From: Burkholderia sp. Bp8992 | GTDB taxonomy: Bacteria; Pseudomonadota; Gammaproteobacteria; Burkholderiales; Burkholderiaceae | DNA: 64,000 nucleotides | Direction of reading: 5' to 3' | Assembly: GCF_003853705.1 (NCBI RefSeq) | Contig: NZ_QTQI01000022.1 | Location: forward strand, 1-64,000 | In this document: piece after piece, positions 10,554-20,188 of the stretch | Numbering within the stretch: the stretch's first letter is position 1 | How the letters are laid out: the number at the start of each line of letters is the position of its first letter | Made by a program: the position numbers and the translations under genes | Notes under the pieces: generated by a model | Databases searched by the model: none | Told to the model about the DNA's origin: nothing | The model's input: the letters and a program-made list of their open reading frames with translations, nothing else

Positions 10554-10573
10554 CCTAAAACATCTTTCATCCT
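10554..10573. promoter_or_regulatory. putative operator upstream of RND operon (site C)
   Basis: TAAAACATCTTTCATCC (10556-10572) matches 15 of 17 positions of the dyad TGAAACATGTTTCATCC found beside the two-component operon at 19794-19810. It lies about 120 bp before the RND pump start, in the 296-bp divergent region 10394-10689 that holds no gene. The assignment as an operator is inference. Confidence 0.45.
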
Positions 10574-10689
10574 GCCCCGCGCCCGGCGTTAAGCGGCGCC
10601 ACGCACACTGCGCGAGCCGAATCGGGTTCCCGCCACGCTTCGGCACTTCGCTGACAGGCCGGCGCCCCGCGCCGGCGGAGACCTCGCCG

Positions 10690-13600
10690 ATGCTGAAACT
10701 CGTCCGACTTGCGCTCGCGCGCCCCTACACGTTCATCGTCCTCGCGCTGCTGATCCTGATCGCGGGGCCGCTCGCGGCGCTGCGCACGCCGACCGACATC
10801 TTTCCCGACATCCGGATCCCGGTCATCAGTGTCGTCTGGAACTACGCGGGCCTGCAGCCGGCCGACATGTCGGGGCGCATCGTCACGTATTACGAGCGCA
10901 CGCTCGGCACGACGGTCAACGACGTCGCGCACATCGAGTCGCAGTCGTTCCGCAGCTTCGGGATCGTCAAGATCTTCTTCCAGCCGAGCGTCGACATCCG
11001 CACCGCGACCGCGCAGGTCACGTCGATCTCGCAGACGGTGCTCAAGCAGATGCCGCCCGGCACCACGCCGCCGCAGATCCTCAACTACAACGCGTCGACG
11101 GTGCCCGTGCTGCAGCTCGCGCTGACGAGCGACACGCTGAACGAGCAGCAGCTCGGCGACTACGCGACCAACGTGATCCGGCCGCAGCTGCTGTCCGTCG
11201 CGGGCGTCGCGATTCCGTCGCCGTACGGCGGCAAGGTGCGCCAGGTGCAGATCGACCTCGATCCGCAGGCGCTGCAGGCCAAGGGGCTGTCCGCGCAGGA
11301 CGTCGCGACCGCGCTCGCGCAGCAGAACCAGATCATCCCGGCCGGCACGCAGAAGATCGGCGGCTTCGAATACAACATCCGGCTCAACGACAGCCCGCTG
11401 ACCATCGACCAGCTCAACGCGCTGCCGATCCGGACCGTCGACGGCGCGGTGATCTTCATGCGCGACGTCGCGCACGTGCGCGACGGCTTTCCGCCGCAGG
11501 GCAACATCGTGCGCGTCGACGGCCGCCGCGCGGTGCTGATGAGCGTGCTGAAAAGCGGCTCGGCGTCGACGCTCGACATCATCGCGGGCGTCAAGGCGCA
11601 GTTGCCGCGCATCGAGGCGACGCTGCCGCCGTCGCTCCGGCTCGTCGTGATGGGCGACCAGTCGGTGTTCGTCAAGGGCGCCGTGAGCGGCGTCGCGCGC
11701 GAAGGCCTGATCGCCGCCGCGCTCACCTCCGCGATGATCCTGCTGTTCCTCGGCAGCTGGCGCTCCACGCTGATCATCGCCGCGTCGATCCCGCTCGCGG
11801 TGCTGGCGGCGATCGCCGCGCTCGCCGCCGCGGGCGAGACGCTCAACGTGATGACGCTCGGCGGGCTCGCGCTCGCGGTCGGCATTCTGGTCGACGACGC
11901 GACCGTCACGATCGAGAACGTCAACTGGCATCTGGAACAGGGCAAGGACGTGCGCAGCGCGATCCTCGACGGCGCATCGCAGATCGTCGCGCCGGCCTTC
12001 GTGTCGCTGCTGTGCATCTGCATCGTGTTCGTGCCGATGCTGCTGCTCGACGGCGTCGCGCGCTTCCTGTTCGTACCGATGGCCGAAGCCGTGATCTTCG
12101 CGATGATCGCGTCGTTCGTGCTGTCCCGCACGTTCGTGCCGATGATGGCCCGTTACCTGCTGAAGCCGCATGCCGCGCATCCGGCGGCCGTGCTCGCACC
12201 GCACGGCGCGCCGTTCGCGCCGCCGCGCGCACGCAATCCGCTCGTCGCGTTCCAGCAGGGCTTCGAGCGCCGCTTCGCCGCACTGCGCGGCGGCTACCGC
12301 ATCGCGCTCGGCCTCGCGCTTGCCCGCCCCGGCCGCTTCGTCGTGTCGTTCCTCGCGGCGGTCGCCGTGTCGTTCGTGCTGGTGCCGGGGCTCGGCCGCA
12401 ATTTCTTCCCGTCGGTCGACTCGGGCGAGATCGCGCTCCACGTGCGCGCCCCGATCGGCACGCGCATCGAGGAAACGGCCGCGCTGTTCGACCGCGTCGA
12501 GCGCACGGTACGCGGCGTCGTGCCGCCGCGCGCGCTCGCGAGCATCGTCGACAACATGGGTTTGCCGAACAGCGGGATCAACCTCACGTACAGCAACAGC
12601 GGCACGATCGGCCCGCAGGACGGCGACATCCTCGTGTCGCTCACCGGCGACCACGCGCCGACGGCCCGCTACGTGAAGCAGCTGCGCACCGCGCTGCCGC
12701 GTGCCTTTCCGGGCGTGACGTTCTCGTTCCTGCCCGCCGACATCGTGAGCCAGATCCTCAACTTCGGCGCCCCGGCCCCGATCGACGTGCAAGTGACGGG
12801 CCCCGACCGGGCGGCCAACCGGGCGTATGCGACCGAGCTGCTGCGCCGCATCCGCGCGGTGCCGGGCGTCGCCGATGCGCGCGTGCAGCAGGCGTCGACC
12901 TATCCGCAGTTCACGGTGTCGGTCGACCGCGCGCGCGCCGCGCAGCTCGGCGTCACCGAGCAGGACGTCACCAATGCGGTGGTCGCCAGCCTGTCCGGCA
13001 CGAGCCAGGTGTCGCCGACCTACTGGCTCGATCCGCACAACGGCGTGTCCTATCCGATCGTCGCGCAGACGCCGCAATACCGGATGACGTCGCTGTCCGA
13101 CCTGCGCGCGCTGCCCGTCACCGGCCGCACGGGCGCCCCGCAACTGCTCGGCGGCCTCGCGACGATCGTGCGCGGGCAGACCGACGCGGTCGTGTCGCAC
13201 TACGACATCGCGCCGCTGTACGACATCTTCGCGACCACACAGGATCGCGATCTCGGCGCGGTCAGCGCCGACATCGAGCGCGTGCTGCACGCGAGCGCCG
13301 CCGACCTGCCGAAAGGGTCGCGCGTGACGGTGCGCGGCCAGGTGCAGACGATGAACAGCGCATTCGGCGGGCTGCTCGCCGGCCTCGCCGGCGCGGTGCT
13401 GCTGATCTACCTGCTGATCGTCGTGAACTTCCATTCGTGGCGCGACGCGTTCGTGATCGTGAGCGGGCTGCCTGCCGCGCTCGCCGGCATCGTCTGGATG
13501 CTGTTCGTCACGCGCACGCCGCTGTCGGTACCCGCGTTGACGGGCGCGATCCTGTGCATGGGCGTCGCGACCGCGAACAGCATCCTCGTCGTCACCTTCG

Positions 13601-13908
13601 CACGCGAACGGCTCGCGCACACCGCCGACGCGGCCGTCGCCGCACTCGAGGCCGGCTTCACGCGCTTTCGTCCCGTGATGATGACCGCGCTCGCGATGAT
13701 CATCGGCATGGCGCCGATGGCCCTCGGCCTCGGCGACGGCGGCGAGCAGAACGCCCCGCTCGGCCGCGCGGTCATCGGCGGCCTGCTGTGCGCGACCGTC
13801 GCGACGCTGGTGTTCGTGCCCGTCGTGTTCAGCCTCGTTCATCGGCGCGATCGCGCGCCGCGCTCCGAATCCCTTTCCGTCACTCCGGGAGAACAGCATG
13901 TCCACTGA
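10690..13908 (+). CDS. RND multidrug-type efflux permease (AcrB/HAE-1 superfamily)
   Basis: This is the inner-membrane proton-driven pump of a tripartite exporter. The 1072 residues have the duplicated RND layout: TM1 at the N-terminus (FIVLALLILIAGPLAAL), a periplasmic loop with PTDIFPDIRIPVI, and TM helices 2-6 from about residue 340. The proton-relay Asp pair of TM4 is present in ALAVGILVDDATVTIENV, and a second half starts near residue 545. The Asp-Asp pair, rather than the HME pattern, argues for organic or drug substrates, not heavy metals; the substrate is unknown. It overlaps the adaptor gene by 11 bp. Confidence 0.93.
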   Translation: MLKLVRLALARPYTFIVLALLILIAGPLAALRTPTDIFPDIRIPVISVVWNYAGLQPADMSGRIVTYYERTLGTTVNDVAHIESQSFRSFGIVKIFFQPSVDIRTATAQVTSISQTVLKQMPPGTTPPQILNYNASTVPVLQLALTSDTLNEQQLGDYATNVIRPQLLSVAGVAIPSPYGGKVRQVQIDLDPQALQAKGLSAQDVATALAQQNQIIPAGTQKIGGFEYNIRLNDSPLTIDQLNALPIRTVDGAVIFMRDVAHVRDGFPPQGNIVRVDGRRAVLMSVLKSGSASTLDIIAGVKAQLPRIEATLPPSLRLVVMGDQSVFVKGAVSGVAREGLIAAALTSAMILLFLGSWRSTLIIAASIPLAVLAAIAALAAAGETLNVMTLGGLALAVGILVDDATVTIENVNWHLEQGKDVRSAILDGASQIVAPAFVSLLCICIVFVPMLLLDGVARFLFVPMAEAVIFAMIASFVLSRTFVPMMARYLLKPHAAHPAAVLAPHGAPFAPPRARNPLVAFQQGFERRFAALRGGYRIALGLALARPGRFVVSFLAAVAVSFVLVPGLGRNFFPSVDSGEIALHVRAPIGTRIEETAALFDRVERTVRGVVPPRALASIVDNMGLPNSGINLTYSNSGTIGPQDGDILVSLTGDHAPTARYVKQLRTALPRAFPGVTFSFLPADIVSQILNFGAPAPIDVQVTGPDRAANRAYATELLRRIRAVPGVADARVQQASTYPQFTVSVDRARAAQLGVTEQDVTNAVVASLSGTSQVSPTYWLDPHNGVSYPIVAQTPQYRMTSLSDLRALPVTGRTGAPQLLGGLATIVRGQTDAVVSHYDIAPLYDIFATTQDRDLGAVSADIERVLHASAADLPKGSRVTVRGQVQTMNSAFGGLLAGLAGAVLLIYLLIVVNFHSWRDAFVIVSGLPAALAGIVWMLFVTRTPLSVPALTGAILCMGVATANSILVVTFARERLAHTADAAVAALEAGFTRFRPVMMTALAMIIGMAPMALGLGDGGEQNAPLGRAVIGGLLCATVATLVFVPVVFSLVHRRDRAPRSESLSVTPGEQHVH

Positions 13909-15073
13909 ATTCGAAGTCCGTCCCCCCGGCACGCCGCGCTACCTGAAGCCGCTCGCGATCGCGGGCGCTGCCGCCGCGCTCGCCGTCGCGGCCGCCGGCG
14001 TCTTTGCCCGCCTGCACGACGCGCACGCGGTCGCCGCATGGACCGCGCAGCAAGCGATCCCGACCGTCGCAACGGTCGCGCCGCAGCCGGCCGCGGCCGA
14101 CGCACTCGTGCTGCCGGGCCGCCTGTACGCGTATGTCGACGCCCCGATCTACGCACGCGTGCCGGGCTACCTGCATGCGTGGTACGCCGATATCGGCGCG
14201 CACGTAAAGGCCGGCCAGCTGCTCGCGTCGATCGACACGCCCGATCTCGACCAGCAGTTGCAGCAGGCCCGCGCGGACCTGCAAAGCGCGAGCGCGAACG
14301 AGCGGCTCGCCGCCGTCACGGCCGCACGTTGGGCCGCGATGCTTGCGCAGGACTCCGTATCGCAGCAGGAGGCCGACGAGAAGCGCAGCGACCTCGACGC
14401 GAAACGCGCGGCGGTCGCGGCCAGCACCGCCAACGTGCGAAGGCTCGAAGCACTCGAATCGTTCAAGCGGCTCACCGCGCCGTTCGACGGCGTCGTGACG
14501 GCCCGCAAGACCGACGTCGGCGCGCTGATCGACGCGGGCAGCGGCAACGGCGCCGAACTCTTCACCGTGTCGGATGCACGGCGGCTGCGGCTGTACGTCC
14601 ACGTGCCGCAAGACGACGCGGCCGCGATCCGCGCTGGCATGCAGGTCGCGCTGACCGTACCGGAGCGCCCCGGCACGACGTTCGACGCGACGCTCGCGGA
14701 TTCCGCGCAGTCGATCGATCCGGCTTCCGGCACGCTGCTCGCGCAGTTCTCGATCGCCAACCCGGCCGGCACGCTGTTTCCCGGCGAATACGCGCAGGTG
14801 CGGATCGCGGTGCCCGGCGCCTCGCACGCGCTGACGATTCCGGCCAGCACGCTGATCTTCCGCCATGACGGATTGCAGGTCGCGGTACTCGACGCGAACG
14901 GCCATGCAAGATTGCGCAACGTATCGATCGCGACCGATCTCGGCACGCGCGTCGAGATCGCGTCGGGGCTCTCGGCCGGTGACCGCGTGATCGACAACCC
15001 GCCCGATTCGCTCGCAGATGGCGACCGCGTGCGCGTCGCCGGCACCACGACCACGGAGCGCGCGCATGGCTGA
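13898..15073 (+). CDS. RND efflux periplasmic adaptor (membrane fusion protein)
   Basis: This links the RND pump to the outer-membrane channel. It has 391 residues with a single N-terminal membrane anchor (about residues 22-42), a lipoyl/barrel half-motif (VPGYLHAWYADIGAHVKAGQLL), an alpha-helical hairpin from about 95 to 180 (QQLQQARADLQSASANERL), and the second lipoyl half with RLTAPFDGVVTARKTDVGAL. The beta-barrel and membrane-proximal domains follow. The gene overlaps the pump by 11 bp and the outer-membrane gene by 8 bp, so the three are translationally coupled. Confidence 0.94.
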   Translation: MSTEFEVRPPGTPRYLKPLAIAGAAAALAVAAAGVFARLHDAHAVAAWTAQQAIPTVATVAPQPAAADALVLPGRLYAYVDAPIYARVPGYLHAWYADIGAHVKAGQLLASIDTPDLDQQLQQARADLQSASANERLAAVTAARWAAMLAQDSVSQQEADEKRSDLDAKRAAVAASTANVRRLEALESFKRLTAPFDGVVTARKTDVGALIDAGSGNGAELFTVSDARRLRLYVHVPQDDAAAIRAGMQVALTVPERPGTTFDATLADSAQSIDPASGTLLAQFSIANPAGTLFPGEYAQVRIAVPGASHALTIPASTLIFRHDGLQVAVLDANGHARLRNVSIATDLGTRVEIASGLSAGDRVIDNPPDSLADGDRVRVAGTTTTERAHG

Positions 15074-16481
15074 CCGACTGCTTGCCGCGTGGCTGGGCAG
15101 CATCGCGCTGCTCGCGGGCTGTTCGCTTGCGCCGACCTATCGCGCACCGGACGTTCCGCTACCGGCCGCGTTTCGCGAAACGGGCCCGTGGGTCGATGCC
15201 GCACCGGCCGATCGCCTGCCGCGCGACGGCTGGTGGCGCGTGTATGGCGACGCGACGCTCGACCGGCTCGAACCGCTCGTCGCACAGGCGAATCCCGACC
15301 TTGCAGTCGCCGTCGCACGCCACGACGAAGCTGCCGCGCTGTTCGACGAAGCGCATGCGGCATTGCTGCCGACCATGGGCATCGATGCCGAAACCGACCG
15401 CGACCGCCAGTCGGCGCGCCGGCCGCTGCGCGGCAGCGGCCAGCCCGACGTCTACGAATCGAACACGCTCGAAGCCGGCATCGGCTACGACGTCGATCTG
15501 TGGGGCAAGGTCCGCAACACGGTCGCGGCCGGCCGCAACGATGCGCAGGCGGCCGACGACGATCTCGCGTCGGTCCGGCTCAGCCTGCAGGCCGGCGTGG
15601 CCAGCACCTACTTCGACCTCGCGGGCCTCGACCGCGAAGCCGACACGCTCGCGCAAACGATCGACACGTACCGCCGCGCGTGGCAGCTGACGGTCAGCCG
15701 CCATCGCGGCGGTCTCGCGTCGGGGCTCGACGTGTCGCGTGCGCAGACGCAACTCTCGCTTGCCCAGGCACGCGCGTCCGACATCGCCGCGCGCCGCGCA
15801 CTCGACGAGCATGCGATCGCGGCGCTCGTCGGCGCATCCGCGTCGACGTTCACGTTGCCCCCCGTCGCGGCGCTGCCGGGCGTGCCGTCGATTCCGACCG
15901 GGCTCGCGTCGACGCTGCTCGAACGCCGGCCGGACGTCGCCGCCGCCGAACGCCGCGTCGCGGCCGCGAACGCACGGATCGGCGTCGCCCGCGCGGCCTA
16001 TTTCCCCGACCTGTCGCTCGGCCTCGATGCCGGCTTCCAGAGCGATACGTTTTCGCCGTGGCTCGCCGCGCCGAACGAGATCTGGTCGATCGGGCCGCGT
16101 CTCGCGATGACGCTGTTCGACGGCGGCCTGCGCGCCGCCGGCGTACGCAAGTCGCGCGCGCAGTTCGCCGAACAGGGCGCACGCTATCGCGCCGTCGTGC
16201 TGCAGGCGTTCCGCGAGGTCGAGGACGATCTCGCGCTGCTGCACCGTCTCGGCGACGAATCGGACCAGGACGACGCGGCGCTCGTCGCGGCACGGCAGTC
16301 GCTCGCACTCGCGATGTCGCGCTATCGCGACGGTGCGGTCAGCTATCTCGACGTGGTCACGGCGCAGACGACCGAACTCGATACGCAGATCGCGTCGCTC
16401 GATGCCGAGGCACGACGCCTGCAGGCCTCCGTCGGGCTCGTGCGCGCGCTCGGCGGCGGCTGGCACGCCGCGCGTTCATGA
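15066..16481 (+). CDS. RND efflux outer-membrane lipoprotein (NodT/OprM family)
   Basis: This is the TolC-like outer-membrane duct of the exporter. It has 471 residues from the ATG at 15066. The lipobox LLAGC gives a lipidated Cys near residue 18, followed by SLAPTYRAPDV. The two repeats of the outer-membrane efflux domain are visible, each with a long helical segment; NLLxARPDV-type motifs appear as LLERRPDVAAAERRVAAANARIG. An upstream in-frame ATG at 15018 would put 16 residues before the signal, so it is rejected. The stop codon overlaps a candidate operator dyad. Confidence 0.94.
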   Translation: MADRLLAAWLGSIALLAGCSLAPTYRAPDVPLPAAFRETGPWVDAAPADRLPRDGWWRVYGDATLDRLEPLVAQANPDLAVAVARHDEAAALFDEAHAALLPTMGIDAETDRDRQSARRPLRGSGQPDVYESNTLEAGIGYDVDLWGKVRNTVAAGRNDAQAADDDLASVRLSLQAGVASTYFDLAGLDREADTLAQTIDTYRRAWQLTVSRHRGGLASGLDVSRAQTQLSLAQARASDIAARRALDEHAIAALVGASASTFTLPPVAALPGVPSIPTGLASTLLERRPDVAAAERRVAAANARIGVARAAYFPDLSLGLDAGFQSDTFSPWLAAPNEIWSIGPRLAMTLFDGGLRAAGVRKSRAQFAEQGARYRAVVLQAFREVEDDLALLHRLGDESDQDDAALVAARQSLALAMSRYRDGAVSYLDVVTAQTTELDTQIASLDAEARRLQASVGLVRALGGGWHAARS

Positions 16482-16496
16482 ACGTTTCTTCATCGG
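16477..16496. promoter_or_regulatory. putative operator upstream of DUF4148 gene (site D)
   Basis: ATGAA-N6-TTCAT (16478-16493) has the same dyad arms and spacing as site A at 19756-19771 near the signalling operon. A possible -10 (TAACGT, 16527-16532) begins 41.5 bp from the dyad centre. The same distance separates site B from a possible -10 (TACGCT, 19842-19847) ahead of the other DUF4148 gene. Confidence 0.45.
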
Positions 16497-16591
16497 CACG
16501 CCCGGTGCCCGCACCGGCGCGCCCGATAACGTGGTACCTGCCGGCATCGCCGTCGCGGCACCGGCCACTGTCACTTGAAAAGGATCACGCC

Positions 16592-16849
16592 ATGAAGACC
16601 TTGATGTCCGCCACCCTCCTCTCCGCCCTCTGCGTCGCGCTGCCCGGCCGGGCCAGCGCGATGCCGCCCGCTGCGCCGACGGCTTCGCAGACGCTCGCCT
16701 CCAGCGCACCCGCACGGGTGTCATCGCAATCGGCATGGAATGCCCCGCAAGCCGCGCCGCTGACGCGTGCGCAGGTCTACCGCGAACTCGTCCACGCCGA
16801 ACGCGACGGCCAGCTCGCGCAACTCAATCGCGAACTCTATTCGCACTGA
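16592..16849 (+). CDS. small secreted DUF4148-type protein
   Basis: The 85-residue protein has a signal peptide (cleavage near RASA-MP), a low-complexity Ala/Ser/Pro linker, and a C-terminal segment LTRAQVYRELVHAERDGQL. That segment is the core of DUF4148, a Burkholderiales-expanded family of unknown function. It lacks the usual YNP...YP extension and is shorter than the second DUF4148 protein in this window. AAGGA lies 9 bp before the ATG. It follows the RND operon by 110 bp, with a candidate operator in the gap. Confidence 0.75.
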   Translation: MKTLMSATLLSALCVALPGRASAMPPAAPTASQTLASSAPARVSSQSAWNAPQAAPLTRAQVYRELVHAERDGQLAQLNRELYSH

Positions 16850-16907
16850 CCGTACGCAAGCGTGCGTGCCGTGCGGCGCGCGGCACGCGCGGCGCGATAT
16901 CGCGCCG

Positions 16908-17573
16908 TCACCTGCCCGTGTCGAACCGGAACCCGAATCGCGCAACCGTTTCGATCCGCGCGGAGAACGCATGCGCGGCCAGCTTGCGCCGCAACCGCAC
17001 GACCAGCGCATTGACCGTTTCGGGTTCGATGTCTGCGTCGCCCCATGCATACCGCAGCACGACATCGCGCCCGACCGGCCGTCCCGATTCGCGCAGCAGG
17101 CATTCGACGAGACGGAATTCCCGCGCGCTGAGCGCCAGCCGCCTGCCGGGCTCCTCGAGTGCGCGTGTCGCCGCGTCGAGCCGGACCGATTCACGCTTGT
17201 CGATCGCACCGGCGCGGCGCCACAGCGCGCGCAGCCGCTCGTGCAGTTCAACGAACGAACACGGGTGGGCAAGACATACGTCGCAGCCGGCCTGCAGCAT
17301 CCGCGCCCGCTGCGCGGGTGTTGCGCCGGTGACGATCGCGGCGATCGTCGCGCCGCCGGCCGAGACGGCGAGTCGCGGCAGTCCGGCGAGGATCGCCGGG
17401 TCGGCCGCGGCATCGGGCGCAGCAATCACGACGGCATCGAACCGGTCCTGCGTCGCCGCGAAACAGCCGTCGCGCCATCCGTCGACGCGTTCGACCCCGT
17501 GCATGCTTTCGCGAAATGCCTTGTCGAGCCGCGCGGCCTCCGGGGTCGGCGGCGCAATCAGCAGGATGCGCAT
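16908..17573 (-). CDS. OmpR-type regulator with degenerate receiver domain
   Basis: It has the domain plan of an OmpR/PhoB response regulator in 221 residues. The C-terminal winged helix (about 125-219) is intact, with LSAREFRLVECLLRESGRP and VNALVVRLRRKL. The N-terminal receiver has lost its phosphorylation chemistry. The acidic pair is replaced (MRILLIAPP), the phospho-acceptor position is Ala51 (FDAVVIAAP), and the conserved Lys is His103 (CLAHPCS). It therefore probably acts without phosphorylation, perhaps through heterodimers or a ligand. It is the last gene of a three-gene signalling operon, 19 bp after the kinase. Confidence 0.85.
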   Translation of the reverse strand: MRILLIAPPTPEAARLDKAFRESMHGVERVDGWRDGCFAATQDRFDAVVIAAPDAAADPAILAGLPRLAVSAGGATIAAIVTGATPAQRARMLQAGCDVCLAHPCSFVELHERLRALWRRAGAIDKRESVRLDAATRALEEPGRRLALSAREFRLVECLLRESGRPVGRDVVLRYAWGDADIEPETVNALVVRLRRKLAAHAFSARIETVARFGFRFDTGR

Positions 17574-17592
17574 CGATCGTTCTCCTGCGCGG

Positions 17593-18984
17593 TCATGCGA
17601 GCGAGCGCGGCCAGCATTCGACCGTGATCGCCGCGCCGGCCGGCTGTGCAGCGCCGATCCGCAGCGCGAAACCGTGCACGCGCATCACGGCCGACACGAT
17701 GCTCAAGCCGAGCCCCGACCCGTTCACATGGCGCGTGCGCTCGCCGCGATAGAAGCGTTCGAGTACCGCGTCGCGCTCGCCGGGCGGAATGCCGGGACCG
17801 GTGTCCTCGAAACGCACGAGCGGGCCGTTCGCGGTCGTGTGGAGCACGACGCGCACGCGACCGCCCGGCGGCGTGAACTTGATGGCGTTGTCGGCGAGAT
17901 TGCTGAACGCCTCGAACAGCAATGCGCGGTCGCCATGAATGCCGTCGACCGATGCCGCATCGAGCATGAACGACACGTCGGCGGCTTCGGCCAGCGGTTC
18001 ATAGAGTTCGCACACGTCGCGCAGCAACGCCGCGACGTCGACCGCGGCAAAGCCGCCGCGCCGACTCAGTGTGCCGATCTCGGAGATGCGCAGCATCGCG
18101 CGAAAGCGTTCGAGCAACCGGTCGGTTTCGTCGCGCGCGCAAGCCAGCAGCGCCGCCGACGCAGGATCGTCCGCGCAGAACGGCTGGTCGGCCAGCCGCG
18201 CCAGCATCGTGTGCACGCGTGCGAGCGGTGTGCGCAGGTCGTGCGCGATGCCGTCGCAGGTATGTCGCACCTCGCCCATCAGCCGCTCGACTTCGTCGAG
18301 CATGTGGTTCACCAGATGCGCGAGCAGGTCGAGTTCGTCATAGCGGCCGACCGGCAGCCGCTTGCCGAGATCGCCTTCGGCGATCTGCCGCGTGACGCGC
18401 CGGATCGCGGCGACGCGGCGCATCTGCCGCATGCCGAGCATGCTGCCGCCCGCGATGCCCGCGATCAGGATCATCACGCCGCCGATCACGAGCCCGCGGA
18501 TCGCGACATCGCGGATCTGGATGAAATGCGACAGGTCGCGCGCGACGACCAGCGTCATTCCGTTGTCGCGGCGCACGGCCATCGCACGCGTGATCGGCGC
18601 GGGCTGGCCGTCGAGCGGCGCGAGCGTGCGGTTCAGCGTCCGCCCCTGGCGGTCCGCGCGCAGCGCGGGCGGCGTTGCGATGTCGCCGGCCACGCGGTGC
18701 CCGGCCGCGTCGAACAGCCCGTAGAAATTCGTATGCATGTGCTCGTGCTCGAGCCGCCGGTGGATCGCGAGCGGCAGCTCGGCATCGGGGATCGAATCGA
18801 AATAGATCAGCTGCCACGCGAGCACCTCGTCGGTGTCGCGCGCCATCGTGTGCGTCGCCGCCACGTTGATCACGCCCGCGAGCAGCAGCAGCGACACCGA
18901 GAAGATCGCCGCATACGCGCACAGCCAGCGAAACGTCGTCGTATGCCAGCGGCGCGTGAAGTTCGCCGCGCGAGCCGCGTCCAT
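17593..18984 (-). CDS. sensor histidine kinase
   Basis: This is a membrane sensor kinase of 463 residues. TM1 is about 18-40, a periplasmic domain of roughly 120 residues follows, and TM2 is about 163-185. HAMP follows, then the H-box GIAHDLRTPLARV with phospho-accepting His248, the N-box NLADNAIKF (362-370), the G1 box DTGPGIP (394-400) and the G2 box GSGLGLSIV. The periplasmic domain contains the cluster HEHMH (80-84), a possible metal site. The ATG at 18982-18984 lies 11 bp after the response-regulator gene. Its likely partner is that regulator. The signal is unknown. Confidence 0.93.
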   Translation of the reverse strand: MDAARAANFTRRWHTTTFRWLCAYAAIFSVSLLLLAGVINVAATHTMARDTDEVLAWQLIYFDSIPDAELPLAIHRRLEHEHMHTNFYGLFDAAGHRVAGDIATPPALRADRQGRTLNRTLAPLDGQPAPITRAMAVRRDNGMTLVVARDLSHFIQIRDVAIRGLVIGGVMILIAGIAGGSMLGMRQMRRVAAIRRVTRQIAEGDLGKRLPVGRYDELDLLAHLVNHMLDEVERLMGEVRHTCDGIAHDLRTPLARVHTMLARLADQPFCADDPASAALLACARDETDRLLERFRAMLRISEIGTLSRRGGFAAVDVAALLRDVCELYEPLAEAADVSFMLDAASVDGIHGDRALLFEAFSNLADNAIKFTPPGGRVRVVLHTTANGPLVRFEDTGPGIPPGERDAVLERFYRGERTRHVNGSGLGLSIVSAVMRVHGFALRIGAAQPAGAAITVECWPRSLA

Positions 18985-18995
18985 TCCCGCCTCCG

Positions 18996-19670
18996 TCACG
19001 CGAGCATGTAGCCCGAGCCGCGCACCGTCTGGATCATCGGTTGCGCGCCGGGCGGATCGATCTTCTTGCGCAGCCGGCCCATGTGGACGTCGATCAGGTT
19101 GGTGCCGGGATCGAAGTGATAGCCCCACACGGTCTCGAACAGCATCGTGCGCGTGATGGTCTGGCCCGCGTTGCGCATCATGAATTCGAGCACGCGGAAT
19201 TCCGTCGGCAGCAGCGGAATCTCGTCGCCGCCGCGGCGCGCGCAGCGCGAAATGAGGTCGAGTTCGAGCGCGCCGACTTTCAGCAGCGTCTGCTGCGGCA
19301 CGCCCGATGCCTGCCGGCGGCGCAGCAGCACCTCGATGCGCGCGCTCAGCTCGCCGGAATCGAACGGCTTCGTCAGGTAGTCGTCGCCGCCCGCGCGCAG
19401 CCCGCGGATGCGCTCGTCGACGTCGCCGAGCGCGCTCAGCATCAGCACCGGCGTATCGATGCCGACCGTGCGCATCGCGGTGAGGATCGCGAGGCCGTCC
19501 GCGCCCGGCAGCATCCGGTCGAGCGTGATCGCGTCGTACGATGCGCTCATCGCGCGCATCATCCCGTCGCGGCCGTTGTCGATCCAGTCGACCTCGAACC
19601 CGCGCGCGGTCAGCTCGCCGACGATCTCGTTCGCGGTCACCGCATCGTCCTCGACTGTCAGCACTCGCAT
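18996..19670 (-). CDS. OmpR-family response regulator
   Basis: This is a canonical two-component regulator of 224 residues. The receiver starts MRVLTVEDDA with the acidic pair intact, the phospho-acceptor is Asp51 (AITLDRMLPGADG), and the conserved Lys is in DYLTKPFDSGEL. The winged-helix domain includes LLPTEFRVLEFMMRNAGQTITR and VHMGRLRKKID. ATG 19668-19670 is chosen over an upstream in-frame start because GAGGA lies 7 bp before it. It is the first gene of the operon regulator-kinase-degenerate regulator and probably binds the nearby tandem dyads. Confidence 0.95.
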   Translation of the reverse strand: MRVLTVEDDAVTANEIVGELTARGFEVDWIDNGRDGMMRAMSASYDAITLDRMLPGADGLAILTAMRTVGIDTPVLMLSALGDVDERIRGLRAGGDDYLTKPFDSGELSARIEVLLRRRQASGVPQQTLLKVGALELDLISRCARRGGDEIPLLPTEFRVLEFMMRNAGQTITRTMLFETVWGYHFDPGTNLIDVHMGRLRKKIDPPGAQPMIQTVRGSGYMLA

Positions 19671-19754
19671 GGTTGTCCTCGCAATGAACGTCACGTCGGG
19701 CGCACACGGTGCGCCCGCGACTATCGTAGGCGACGCGGCCGCCGTCCGGCGCTA

Positions 19755-19811
19755 CATGAAAAATGCTTCATCCGGCGCCGCGGCAAGCGCGCGTGAAACA
19801 TGTTTCATCCG
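19755..19811. promoter_or_regulatory. tandem operator dyads (sites A and B)
   Basis: There are two 20-bp elements 37 bp apart, identical at 17 of 20 positions. Site A is ATGAA-N6-TTCAT (19756-19771). Site B is the perfect palindrome TGAAACATGTTTCA (19794-19807), and each is followed by TCCG. They lie between the minus-strand response-regulator gene and a plus-strand DUF4148 gene. They are probably operators for the adjacent regulator. Confidence 0.6.
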
Positions 19812-19888
19812 TGCGTCGCCCGCTTCGCCGTGCGCGCCGCCTACGCTGACGTCCTGCGGCATCGGGCCGCGAAACCAGGAGCTACCGG

Positions 19889-20188
19889 ATGAAACTGTCG
19901 ACCACCGTCGCCTGCATGCTGCTCGCATGCGCCAGCACCGCCGCCTTGGCGGGGCCGCACCTCACCCCGCAGGAATGCAACGCGTACCCGTTCGTTCACA
20001 CGGGCCGCGACGTCACGCATGCGGACCTCGTGCGCGAGCTGACCGAGCTCGAACAGGTCGGCTACGATCCGGCGCACGCGAGCCCCTACTACCCCGACGA
20101 TCTCGACGGCGCGAAGCATCGGCTCGCCGCCGAATACCGCGTGGACTGCACGCATGCGCTGACGGCCGACGCGGGCGTGCAGCACTGA
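19889..20188 (+). CDS. small secreted DUF4148-family protein
   Basis: The 99-residue exported protein has a signal peptide cleaved near ALA-GP. The mature part carries the full DUF4148 pattern: VTHADLVRELTELEQVGYDPAHASPYYPDDLDGAKHRL is the conserved region, interrupted here only by conservative changes. The family is frequent in Burkholderia and has no established role. The gene diverges from the signalling operon and is flanked by a terminator. Two candidate operators lie upstream. It could be a stress- or signal-induced periplasmic protein, but this is inference from context. Confidence 0.85.
   Translation: MKLSTTVACMLLACASTAALAGPHLTPQECNAYPFVHTGRDVTHADLVRELTELEQVGYDPAHASPYYPDDLDGAKHRLAAEYRVDCTHALTADAGVQH

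What the first reader, a model, noticed from the sequence alone, without database searches (positions are those of the whole stretch)
10554..19811. Four copies of one dyad link an RND pump, two DUF4148 genes and a two-component operon
Seen directly: TGAAACATGTTTCATCC at 19794, a 17/20 sister copy at 19755, a 15/17 copy at 10556 before the RND operon, and ATGAA-N6-TTCAT at 16478 before the first DUF4148 gene. At 16478 and 19794 a -10-like hexamer starts 41.5 bp from the dyad centre. Inference: this is one local regulon, in which the regulator binds all four sites and so controls efflux and two secreted proteins of unknown role.
Basis: partly seen in the sequence, partly recalled or inferred. 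Interest (0 to 1): 0.7.

Follow-up and report, generated by a model that had tools for sequence, protein, structure and literature searches.

The report
Conserved two-component regulon around efflux pump
Four copies of one mirror-image DNA word mark four neighbouring promoters in a Burkholderia genome, and the same word sits in the same places in related bacteria, which points to one sensor-regulator pair switching on a drug-type pump and two small exported proteins of unknown role.

Summary
ATGAAA-N4-TTTCAT (<=2 mismatches) occurs four times in 64 kb, exactly where reported; permuted half-sites average 0.31. The dyads recur in 23 orthologous loci; 6 of these lack pump and first DUF4148 gene, and those two dyads too. 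A matrix trained on 24 loci finds dyads in 46 held-out loci before RND 28/31, DUF4148 40/41 and 29/33, regulator 28/44, against MFP 0/31, OMF 0/30, HK 3/47, RR2 0/42. A -10-like hexamer lies 41.5 bp from the dyad centre at RND 27/27, D2 25/29, D1 19/40, RR1 20/28.

Best reading: the response regulator at 18996-19670 binds these 6-4-6 boxes and activates itself, an RND pump (by gene order RND-16, regulator listed as not available) and both DUF4148 genes. It works like AgrR/CusR with another half-site. Binding, signal and direction of control are untested. New: a conserved second regulator (RR2) with a dead receiver, and spread over eight genera of the family. Against: the 12-bp core alone is not unique (7-13 sites per genome).

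The parts
10555..10570 (.). dyad 1 (CTAAAACATCTTTCAT) before the RND operon
   Evidence: conserved in 17 of 17 aligned loci
10604..10609 (+). -10-like CACACT, 41.5 bp from dyad 1 centre (putative)
   Evidence: 17 of 17 orthologous loci; A2/T6 hexamer at 41.5 in 27 of 27 distinct held-out RND promoters with a dyad
10690..13908 (+). RND permease (ACR_tran), 1072 aa
   Evidence: PF00873 674.9 bits; below the cut-off of every NCBIfam model listed for it
13898..15073 (+). periplasmic adaptor (MFP)
   Evidence: TIGR01730 219.6 bits, cut-off 94.9
15018..16481 (+). outer-membrane factor (NodT type)
   Evidence: TIGR01845 379.9 bits, cut-off 210
16478..16493 (.). dyad 2 (ATGAACGTTTCTTCAT) before DUF4148 gene D1, overlapping the OMF stop codon
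   Evidence: best conserved 16-mer of 128 in its region
16527..16532 (+). -10-like TAACGT, 41.5 bp from dyad 2 centre (putative)
   Evidence: 18 of 18 orthologous loci
16592..16849 (+). D1, DUF4148 protein, 85 aa, signal-peptide-like start (by eye)
   Evidence: PF13663 31.3 bits, cut-off 27
16908..17573 (-). RR2: OmpR-type DNA-binding protein with a dead (pseudo-)receiver
   Evidence: only Trans_reg_C matches; phospho-acceptor Asp absent in 67 of 67 aligned RR2 copies
17593..18984 (-). HK: sensor histidine kinase (HAMP, HisKA, HATPase_c)
18996..19670 (-). RR1: OmpR-type response regulator, proposed binder of all four dyads
   Evidence: PF00072 and PF00486; TIGR01387 204.8 bits, below cut-off 279.2
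19723..19728 (-). -10-like TACGAT for the RR1-HK-RR2 operon, 35.5 bp from dyad 3 centre (putative)
   Evidence: 23 of 24 loci
19756..19771 (.). dyad 3 (ATGAAAAATGCTTCAT), RR1 side
   Evidence: 35-37 bp from dyad 4 in 24 of 24 loci
19793..19808 (.). dyad 4 (GTGAAACATGTTTCAT), D2 side
19842..19847 (+). -10-like TACGCT, 41.5 bp from dyad 4 centre (putative)
   Evidence: 24 of 24 loci
19889..20188 (+). D2, DUF4148 protein, 99 aa, with two Cys shared by its D2-type relatives
   Evidence: PF13663 47.4 bits

Best explanation
The four dyads are operators of the response regulator encoded at 18996-19670 (RR1). Shown by sequence: a 6-4-6 inverted repeat, ATGAAA-N4-TTTCAT, lies before the RND-MFP-OMF operon, before DUF4148 gene D1, before the RR1-HK-RR2 operon and before DUF4148 gene D2, with a -10-like hexamer at a fixed 41.5 bp from the dyad centre in three of the four. 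Inferred: the kinase senses an unknown envelope signal and activates RR1; an RR1 dimer binds each dyad, centred near -53 if the hexamer spans -12 to -7, and recruits RNA polymerase to promoters without a good -35 element. This raises pump, both small exported proteins and the TCS itself (positive autoregulation). RR2, whose receiver lacks the phospho-acceptor, is probably a phosphorylation-independent partner or modulator.
For: Only four sites in 64 kb; permuted half-sites mean 0.31. Dyad pair between RR1 and D2 in 23 of 23 orthologous loci; RND dyad in 16 of 16 loci with the pump start in view, D1 dyad in 17 of 17 with D1; both absent in the 6 of 23 without pump and D1. Held-out loci with score >=12: RND 28/31, D1 40/41, D2 29/33, RR1 28/44, against MFP 0/31, OMF 0/30, HK 3/47, RR2 0/42. 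Held-out <=1 mismatch: 59 matches against a mean of 0.52 for 29 permuted half-sites; 59 at spacer 4 against 0-12 at the other spacers from 0 to 10. A2/T6 hexamer at 41.5 bp: 27/27 RND, 25/29 D2, 19/40 D1, 20/28 RR1; next best offset at most 7. 46 of 72 genus-wide sites near RR1 relatives, 22 of 24 at <=1 mismatch. Of 29 other DUF4148 genes 2 score >=12. RR1 recognition helix nearly invariant. AgrR, CusR and CopR bind inverted-repeat boxes of like size (PMC7380067, PMC11195947, passages).
Against: No binding or expression data. The core with free spacer has 7-13 matches at <=1 mismatch in each of 16 genomes (read-backwards control 0-2), of which 1-3 are at this locus in the 8 genomes that the cut list shows; of 11 such other sites 7 lie in coding-like frames, and none has an A2/T6 hexamer at 41.5 bp (0 of 22 sides). 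Some RR1 relatives lack a good upstream dyad (p > 0.05 in 10 of 29 at 70-77% and 5 of 9 at 66-70% identity). About 6 of the 28 RR1 hits are D2's dyad seen from the other side. HK starts reach p <= 0.05 in 6 of 47. The window's RR1 hexamer is at 35.5, not 41.5 bp, and three of the four dyads are not the best conserved 16-mer of their region. Loci are related by descent, so counts are not independent.
Confidence: 0.82

Rival explanations
1. RR2 (16908-17573), not RR1, is the main binder of the dyads, working without phosphorylation; RR1 acts elsewhere or only through RR2.
For: RR2 is an OmpR-type DNA-binding protein in the same operon, kept in most Burkholderiaceae loci fetched. AgrR can act unphosphorylated (PMC7380067, abstract passage).
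Against: RR2's recognition region differs between the window group (PETVNALVVRLRRKL) and most others (PSSVNLVVSRLRRKL type) while the dyad stays the same. RR2 was not detected in Pseudomonas loci L013-L017, where a dyad-like, mostly weak site lies 73-82 bp before RR1.
Confidence: 0.1
2. The dyads are operators of an unlinked regulator, and the TCS is only one of its targets.
For: The core occurs elsewhere in each of 16 genomes searched, and ATGAAA-N4-TTTCAT also sits in one homologous block of three genomes, one of which (G034) has no RR1 relative at E <= 1e-75.
Against: Sites near RR1 relatives are strongly enriched (46 of 72 in about 0.25% of the DNA); of 32 genomes without an RR1 relative, 5 hold a site other than the unrelated ATGCAACATGTTGCAT. 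Dyads follow RR1 across genera. Targets next to the regulator gene are common for CusR/HprR-like regulators (PMC8249747 passages).
Confidence: 0.06
3. Shared ancestry only: the dyads are conserved because the promoters are duplicates, without one regulator.
For: D1 and D2 belong to one family and the loci compared are related.
Against: The RND, DUF4148 and RR1 promoters differ outside the dyad and hexamer, and only 2 of 29 other DUF4148 genes score >=12.
Confidence: 0.02

Closest known systems
AgrRS / AgrR box of Cupriavidus metallidurans (PMC7380067, abstract and passages)
   Same: OmpR-type regulator, 16-bp 6-4-6 inverted repeat, autoregulation, promoters with poor -35, RND genes (agrCBA) beside agrS in locus numbering, a small periplasmic protein (PrsQ2) as the most upregulated gene.
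   Different: AgrR box is ATKACA-N4-TGTMAT, here ATGAAA-N4-TTTCAT; centred near -43.5 at its own promoter and slightly upstream at others, here about -53 by inference; its small proteins are CopQ-like, and the DUF4148 model found no match above cut-off on pMOL30.
E. coli CusR/HprR and Pseudomonas CusR/CopR/CzcR (PMC11195947, PMC8249747, passages)
   Same: Local regulon, divergent TCS-target intergenic region, inverted-repeat box; E. coli CusR box AAAATGACAANNTTGTCATTTT has the half-site ATGACA against ATGAAA here.
   Different: Known targets are metal resistance genes; RR1 scores below the family cut-off and no metal link was found here.
RND-16 (BCAL2134-2136) of B. cenocepacia J2315 (PMC2891726, PMC8300704, passages)
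   Same: RND gene first, then MFP and OMP; cyoD is BCAL2141 (PMC5749847 passage), and CyoD (120.5 bits, cut-off 81.45) follows D2 in the window. The review's table gives the regulator as N.A.
   Different: Identity with the J2315 proteins was not tested; the match is by gene order.
IrlRS / IrlR2S2 with neighbouring DUF4148 genes in B. pseudomallei (PMC7549894, passages)
   Same: Two-component genes directly beside DUF4148 genes; the authors say the closeness may be coincidental.
   Different: The passages seen describe no operator; those loci were not examined here.
DzrR - RND-8 (PMC10052836, passages)
   Same: Response regulator controlling an RND pump in Burkholderia.
   Different: Its box holds two direct CTCCAT repeats; with <=3 mismatches to it the window has 4 chance-level matches, none between 10300 and 20100.

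Membership tests
Heavy-metal response regulators CusR/CzcR/CopR (NCBIfam TIGR01387) | score above curated cut-off 279.2 bits | tested here: not met
   RR1 204.8 bits
OmpR/PhoB-type response regulators | receiver plus winged-helix DNA-binding domain | tested here: met
   PF00072 79.5 and PF00486 90.8 bits
CusR/AgrR-like inverted-repeat regulons | 16-bp 6-4-6 inverted repeat at target promoters and own promoter | tested here: met
   sequence only: spacer 4 gives 59 matches against 0-12; promoters
CusR/AgrR-like inverted-repeat regulons | the regulator binds the repeat | not testable with these tools
   no binding experiment
AgrR regulon | half-site ATKACA | tested here: not met
   half-site ATGAAA
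AgrR regulon | small periplasmic target of the CopQ family | tested here: inconclusive
   DUF4148 model gives one sub-threshold 23-residue match on pMOL30, which carries copQ by a PMC2864759 passage; the reverse comparison was not made
Metal-responsive regulation | induction by a metal | not testable with these tools
   no experiment; the His-rich stretch of the kinase sensor part is only partly conserved among 71 sequences
RND-16 pump | gene order RND-MFP-OMP near cyoD | tested here: met
RND-16 pump | protein identity with BCAL2134-2136 | not tested
   J2315 sequences were not obtained
DUF4148 (PF13663) | score above cut-off 27 bits | tested here: met
   D1 31.3, D2 47.4 bits
DzrR regulon | two direct CTCCAT repeats before the pump operon | tested here: not met
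   no match near the pump at <=3 mismatches

The most novel reading that the evidence does not exclude
A Burkholderiaceae-wide envelope response built of three regulator parts: a kinase, a phosphorylated activator RR1 and a conserved dead-receiver partner RR2 that shares or competes for the same dyads, with DUF4148 proteins as periplasmic accessory or feedback proteins of the pump or the kinase, in the manner of CpxP, Spy or CusF (comparison recalled). It would give a first functional handle on DUF4148.
Probability: 0.25. Interest if true: 0.7.

Novelty: new member of a known kind. Interest (0 to 1): 0.5.

Why it matters
It offers a concrete, testable regulator and operator for a pump listed with substrates but with regulator N.A. 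(RND-16, PMC8300704 table passage, if the gene-order match is right), and it answers in a testable way the published remark that DUF4148 genes beside two-component systems may be coincidental (PMC7549894 passage): here the link is a shared operator with fixed promoter spacing, kept across genera. DUF4148 genes are numerous (32 matches in G001, 30 above cut-off) and of unknown function.

Tried and rejected
Own genome not held, so genome-wide scans used the nearest genome G001 and the genus. The <=3-mismatch scan of G001 gave 10 places, three of them at this locus. Looked for more regulon members: 11 other matches of the free-spacer core, 10 patterns chosen by eye from the cut list, had no A2/T6 hexamer at 41.5 bp. 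DUF4148 as a CopQ-type protein: only a sub-threshold match. Solved structures for DUF4148: nothing convincing, one chain at E 0.29. Anti-phage library: no match for D1, D2 or RR2. DzrR-type box: not near the pump. Metal-sensing kinase: the His-rich stretch is only partly conserved. Structure prediction of D2: the machine was busy at every try, so no model was made. Loci L191-L193 (RR1 83%) seemed to lack dyads at the <=2-mismatch limit; reading them and scoring by matrix showed weaker versions at the same places.
Full report
Observation. The four dyads are present at the stated places: 10555-10570, 16478-16493, 19756-19771 and 19793-19808. They are the only four matches to ATGAAA-N4-TTTCAT with at most two mismatches in the 64 kb. 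Permuting the half-site gives a mean of 0.31 matches over 29 permutations, at most 2. The two -10-like hexamers at 41.5 bp are right, and a third (CACACT at 10604) lies at the same distance before the RND gene.

Genes. Pfam and NCBIfam place an RND permease, an adaptor, a NodT-type outer-membrane factor and a first DUF4148 protein (D1) on the + strand; on the - strand RR1 (receiver plus winged helix), a HAMP-HisKA-HATPase kinase and RR2, an OmpR-type protein with no receiver match; then a second DUF4148 protein (D2) on + and cyoDCBA on -. In 67 of 67 aligned RR2 copies the acidic pair, the phospho-acceptor Asp and the Lys of the receiver are replaced; 108 of 111 aligned RR1-type sequences keep the Asp and 3 have Glu (the 111 include distant relatives down to about 32% identity).

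Orthologous loci. RR1 has matches at E <= 1e-75 in 33 of 65 genus genomes; 23 of these carry an orthologue at 96-100%. In 23 of 23 fetched loci a dyad pair stands between RR1 and D2; the RND dyad is present in 16 of 16 loci with the pump start in view and the D1 dyad in 17 of 17 with D1. Pump and D1 are absent in 6 of 23 (L130, L133, L137, L139, L142, L143; L143 keeps an 81-residue RND remnant), and there the RND and D1 dyads are absent as well; L131 ends inside the OMF gene. Half-site identity in the alignments is 0.98-1.00 against 0.83-0.88 for the rest of the regions. The D1 dyad is the best conserved 16-mer of 128 in its region, but the others rank lower (RND 17 of 168, D2 24 of 209, RR1 60 of 209), as other parts of these regions are conserved too. 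Spacing to the hexamer is 41.5 bp in 17 of 17 (RND), 18 of 18 (D1) and 24 of 24 (D2); the RR1 promoter has TACGAT at 35.5 bp in 23 of 24. One named record, B. cenocepacia CMCC(B)23006 (NZ_CP091013), has the same TCS, D1 and D2 with three dyads but no RND match and only a 27-residue OMF match.

Held-out test. A symmetric matrix was trained on the window and 23 orthologous loci and used on 46 loci not in the training set: paralogous loci of the genus (RR1 about 73-76%) and loci of other genera of the family (RR1 relatives at E <= 1e-85 in 76 of 398 genomes and 8 of 25 genera, of which I fetched a choice). Best score in 300 bp upstream, threshold 12: RND 28/31, D1 40/41, D2 29/33, RR1 28/44; controls inside the operons MFP 0/31, OMF 0/30, HK 3/47, RR2 0/42; by shuffles at p <= 0.05 the controls give 1, 0, 6 and 1. 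Genes below an identity limit or with under 200 bp upstream were dropped before the count. Limits: a dyad between divergent genes is counted for both, and about six of the RR1 hits (L195-L199, L216) are D2's site. Relatives of RR1 at 54-64%, most of them beside a pump, mostly lack a dyad of their own: 4 of 32 at p <= 0.05, two of these four being the separate L158/L159 systems. One search holds L011 and L012 beside L196 and L210, which look like the same or nearly the same loci. Of 29 DUF4148 genes read in 30 loci (of 83 matches in three genomes), 2 score >= 12, at 15.4 and 12.5.

Promoter architecture. In held-out promoters with a dyad, the offset with most A2/T6 hexamers is 41.5 bp for all four classes: RND 27 of 27 distinct sequences, D2 25 of 29, D1 19 of 40, RR1 20 of 28; the runner-up offset never exceeds 7. 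This spacing was not part of the matrix. In Pseudomonas loci L013-L017 a dyad-like site precedes RR1 with CANAAT at 29.5-31.5 bp, about one helical turn closer; these sites are mostly weak (p 0.005 to 0.24), and for L013 I chose the 16-mer by eye, the matrix preferring another frame.

Genome-wide. With at most 2 mismatches to ATGAAACATGTTTCAT, 72 places in 65 genomes; 46 lie within 12 kb of an RR1-family gene, a zone of about 0.25% of the DNA; at <=1 mismatch 22 of 24. 29 of the 33 genomes with an RR1 relative have such a near site. The read-backwards control gave 0 in all 65. Twelve of the 26 distant places are one unrelated palindrome, ATGCAACATGTTGCAT. Against confinement: with a free spacer, 7-13 places per genome at <=1 mismatch in 16 genomes, control 0-2 (the list was cut). 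Eleven of the others were read: 7 lie in coding-like frames, and none has the hexamer at 41.5 bp (0 of 22 sides).

Which protein binds. RR1's recognition-helix stretch is nearly identical from the window to Pseudomonas L013-L017; RR2's changes between groups and RR2 was not detected in those Pseudomonas loci. I therefore favour RR1, with RR2 as a partner of unknown role.

Known systems. The 6-4-6 geometry, autoregulation, weak -35 and a small periplasmic target resemble AgrR (PMC7380067: abstract and passages seen) and CusR/CopR (PMC11195947, PMC8249747: passages seen). RR1 does not reach the cut-off of the heavy-metal family, and the half-site differs by one letter from ATGACA. The pump fits RND-16 by gene order: BCAL2134-2136 (PMC2891726 passages) and BCAL2141 cyoD (PMC5749847 passage), with regulator N.A. 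in the table of PMC8300704 (passage). Searches for tags BCAL2134-2138 and BCAL2139-2144, for RND-16 and for DUF4148 in the held open library listed no paper on this regulation as far as listings and passages show; subscription papers are mostly not held.

Noticed in passing
window 16908-17573 and RR2 copies in L121-L222: Conserved OmpR-type protein whose receiver lacks the phospho-acceptor Asp and partner residues in 67 of 67 aligned copies.
   Followed up: partly
L097, L107, L113 near position 1501: ATGCAACATGTTGCAT, followed about 25 bp on by a second TGCAACTTGTTGCA, near an ATG; the palindrome recurs once in 12 of 65 genus genomes and looks like another regulator's operator (three loci read).
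   Followed up: partly
L106, L110, L160: An ATGAAA-N4-TTTCAT site in one homologous block of three genomes; in L160 a nearby ORF reads like a phage-type replication protein (judged by eye).
   Followed up: partly
L144-L157 and many of L192-L222: A 54-64% relative of RR1 stands directly beside the pump in many paralogous loci and mostly has no dyad before itself.
   Followed up: partly
window 19889-20188 and alignment A1: D2-type DUF4148 proteins share two cysteines (ECxxYPF ... YxxDC) that the nine ordinary DUF4148 proteins in the alignment lack.
   Followed up: no
held-out promoters: A second small element, GNTAG or GTTAG, 25.5 bp from the dyad centre in many RND, D1 and D2 promoters (by eye); not seen in the window's D1 and D2.
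   Followed up: no
L191-L193: Tandem HK-RR2-RR1-HK-RR2 arrangement, beside the pump in L192 and L193.
   Followed up: no
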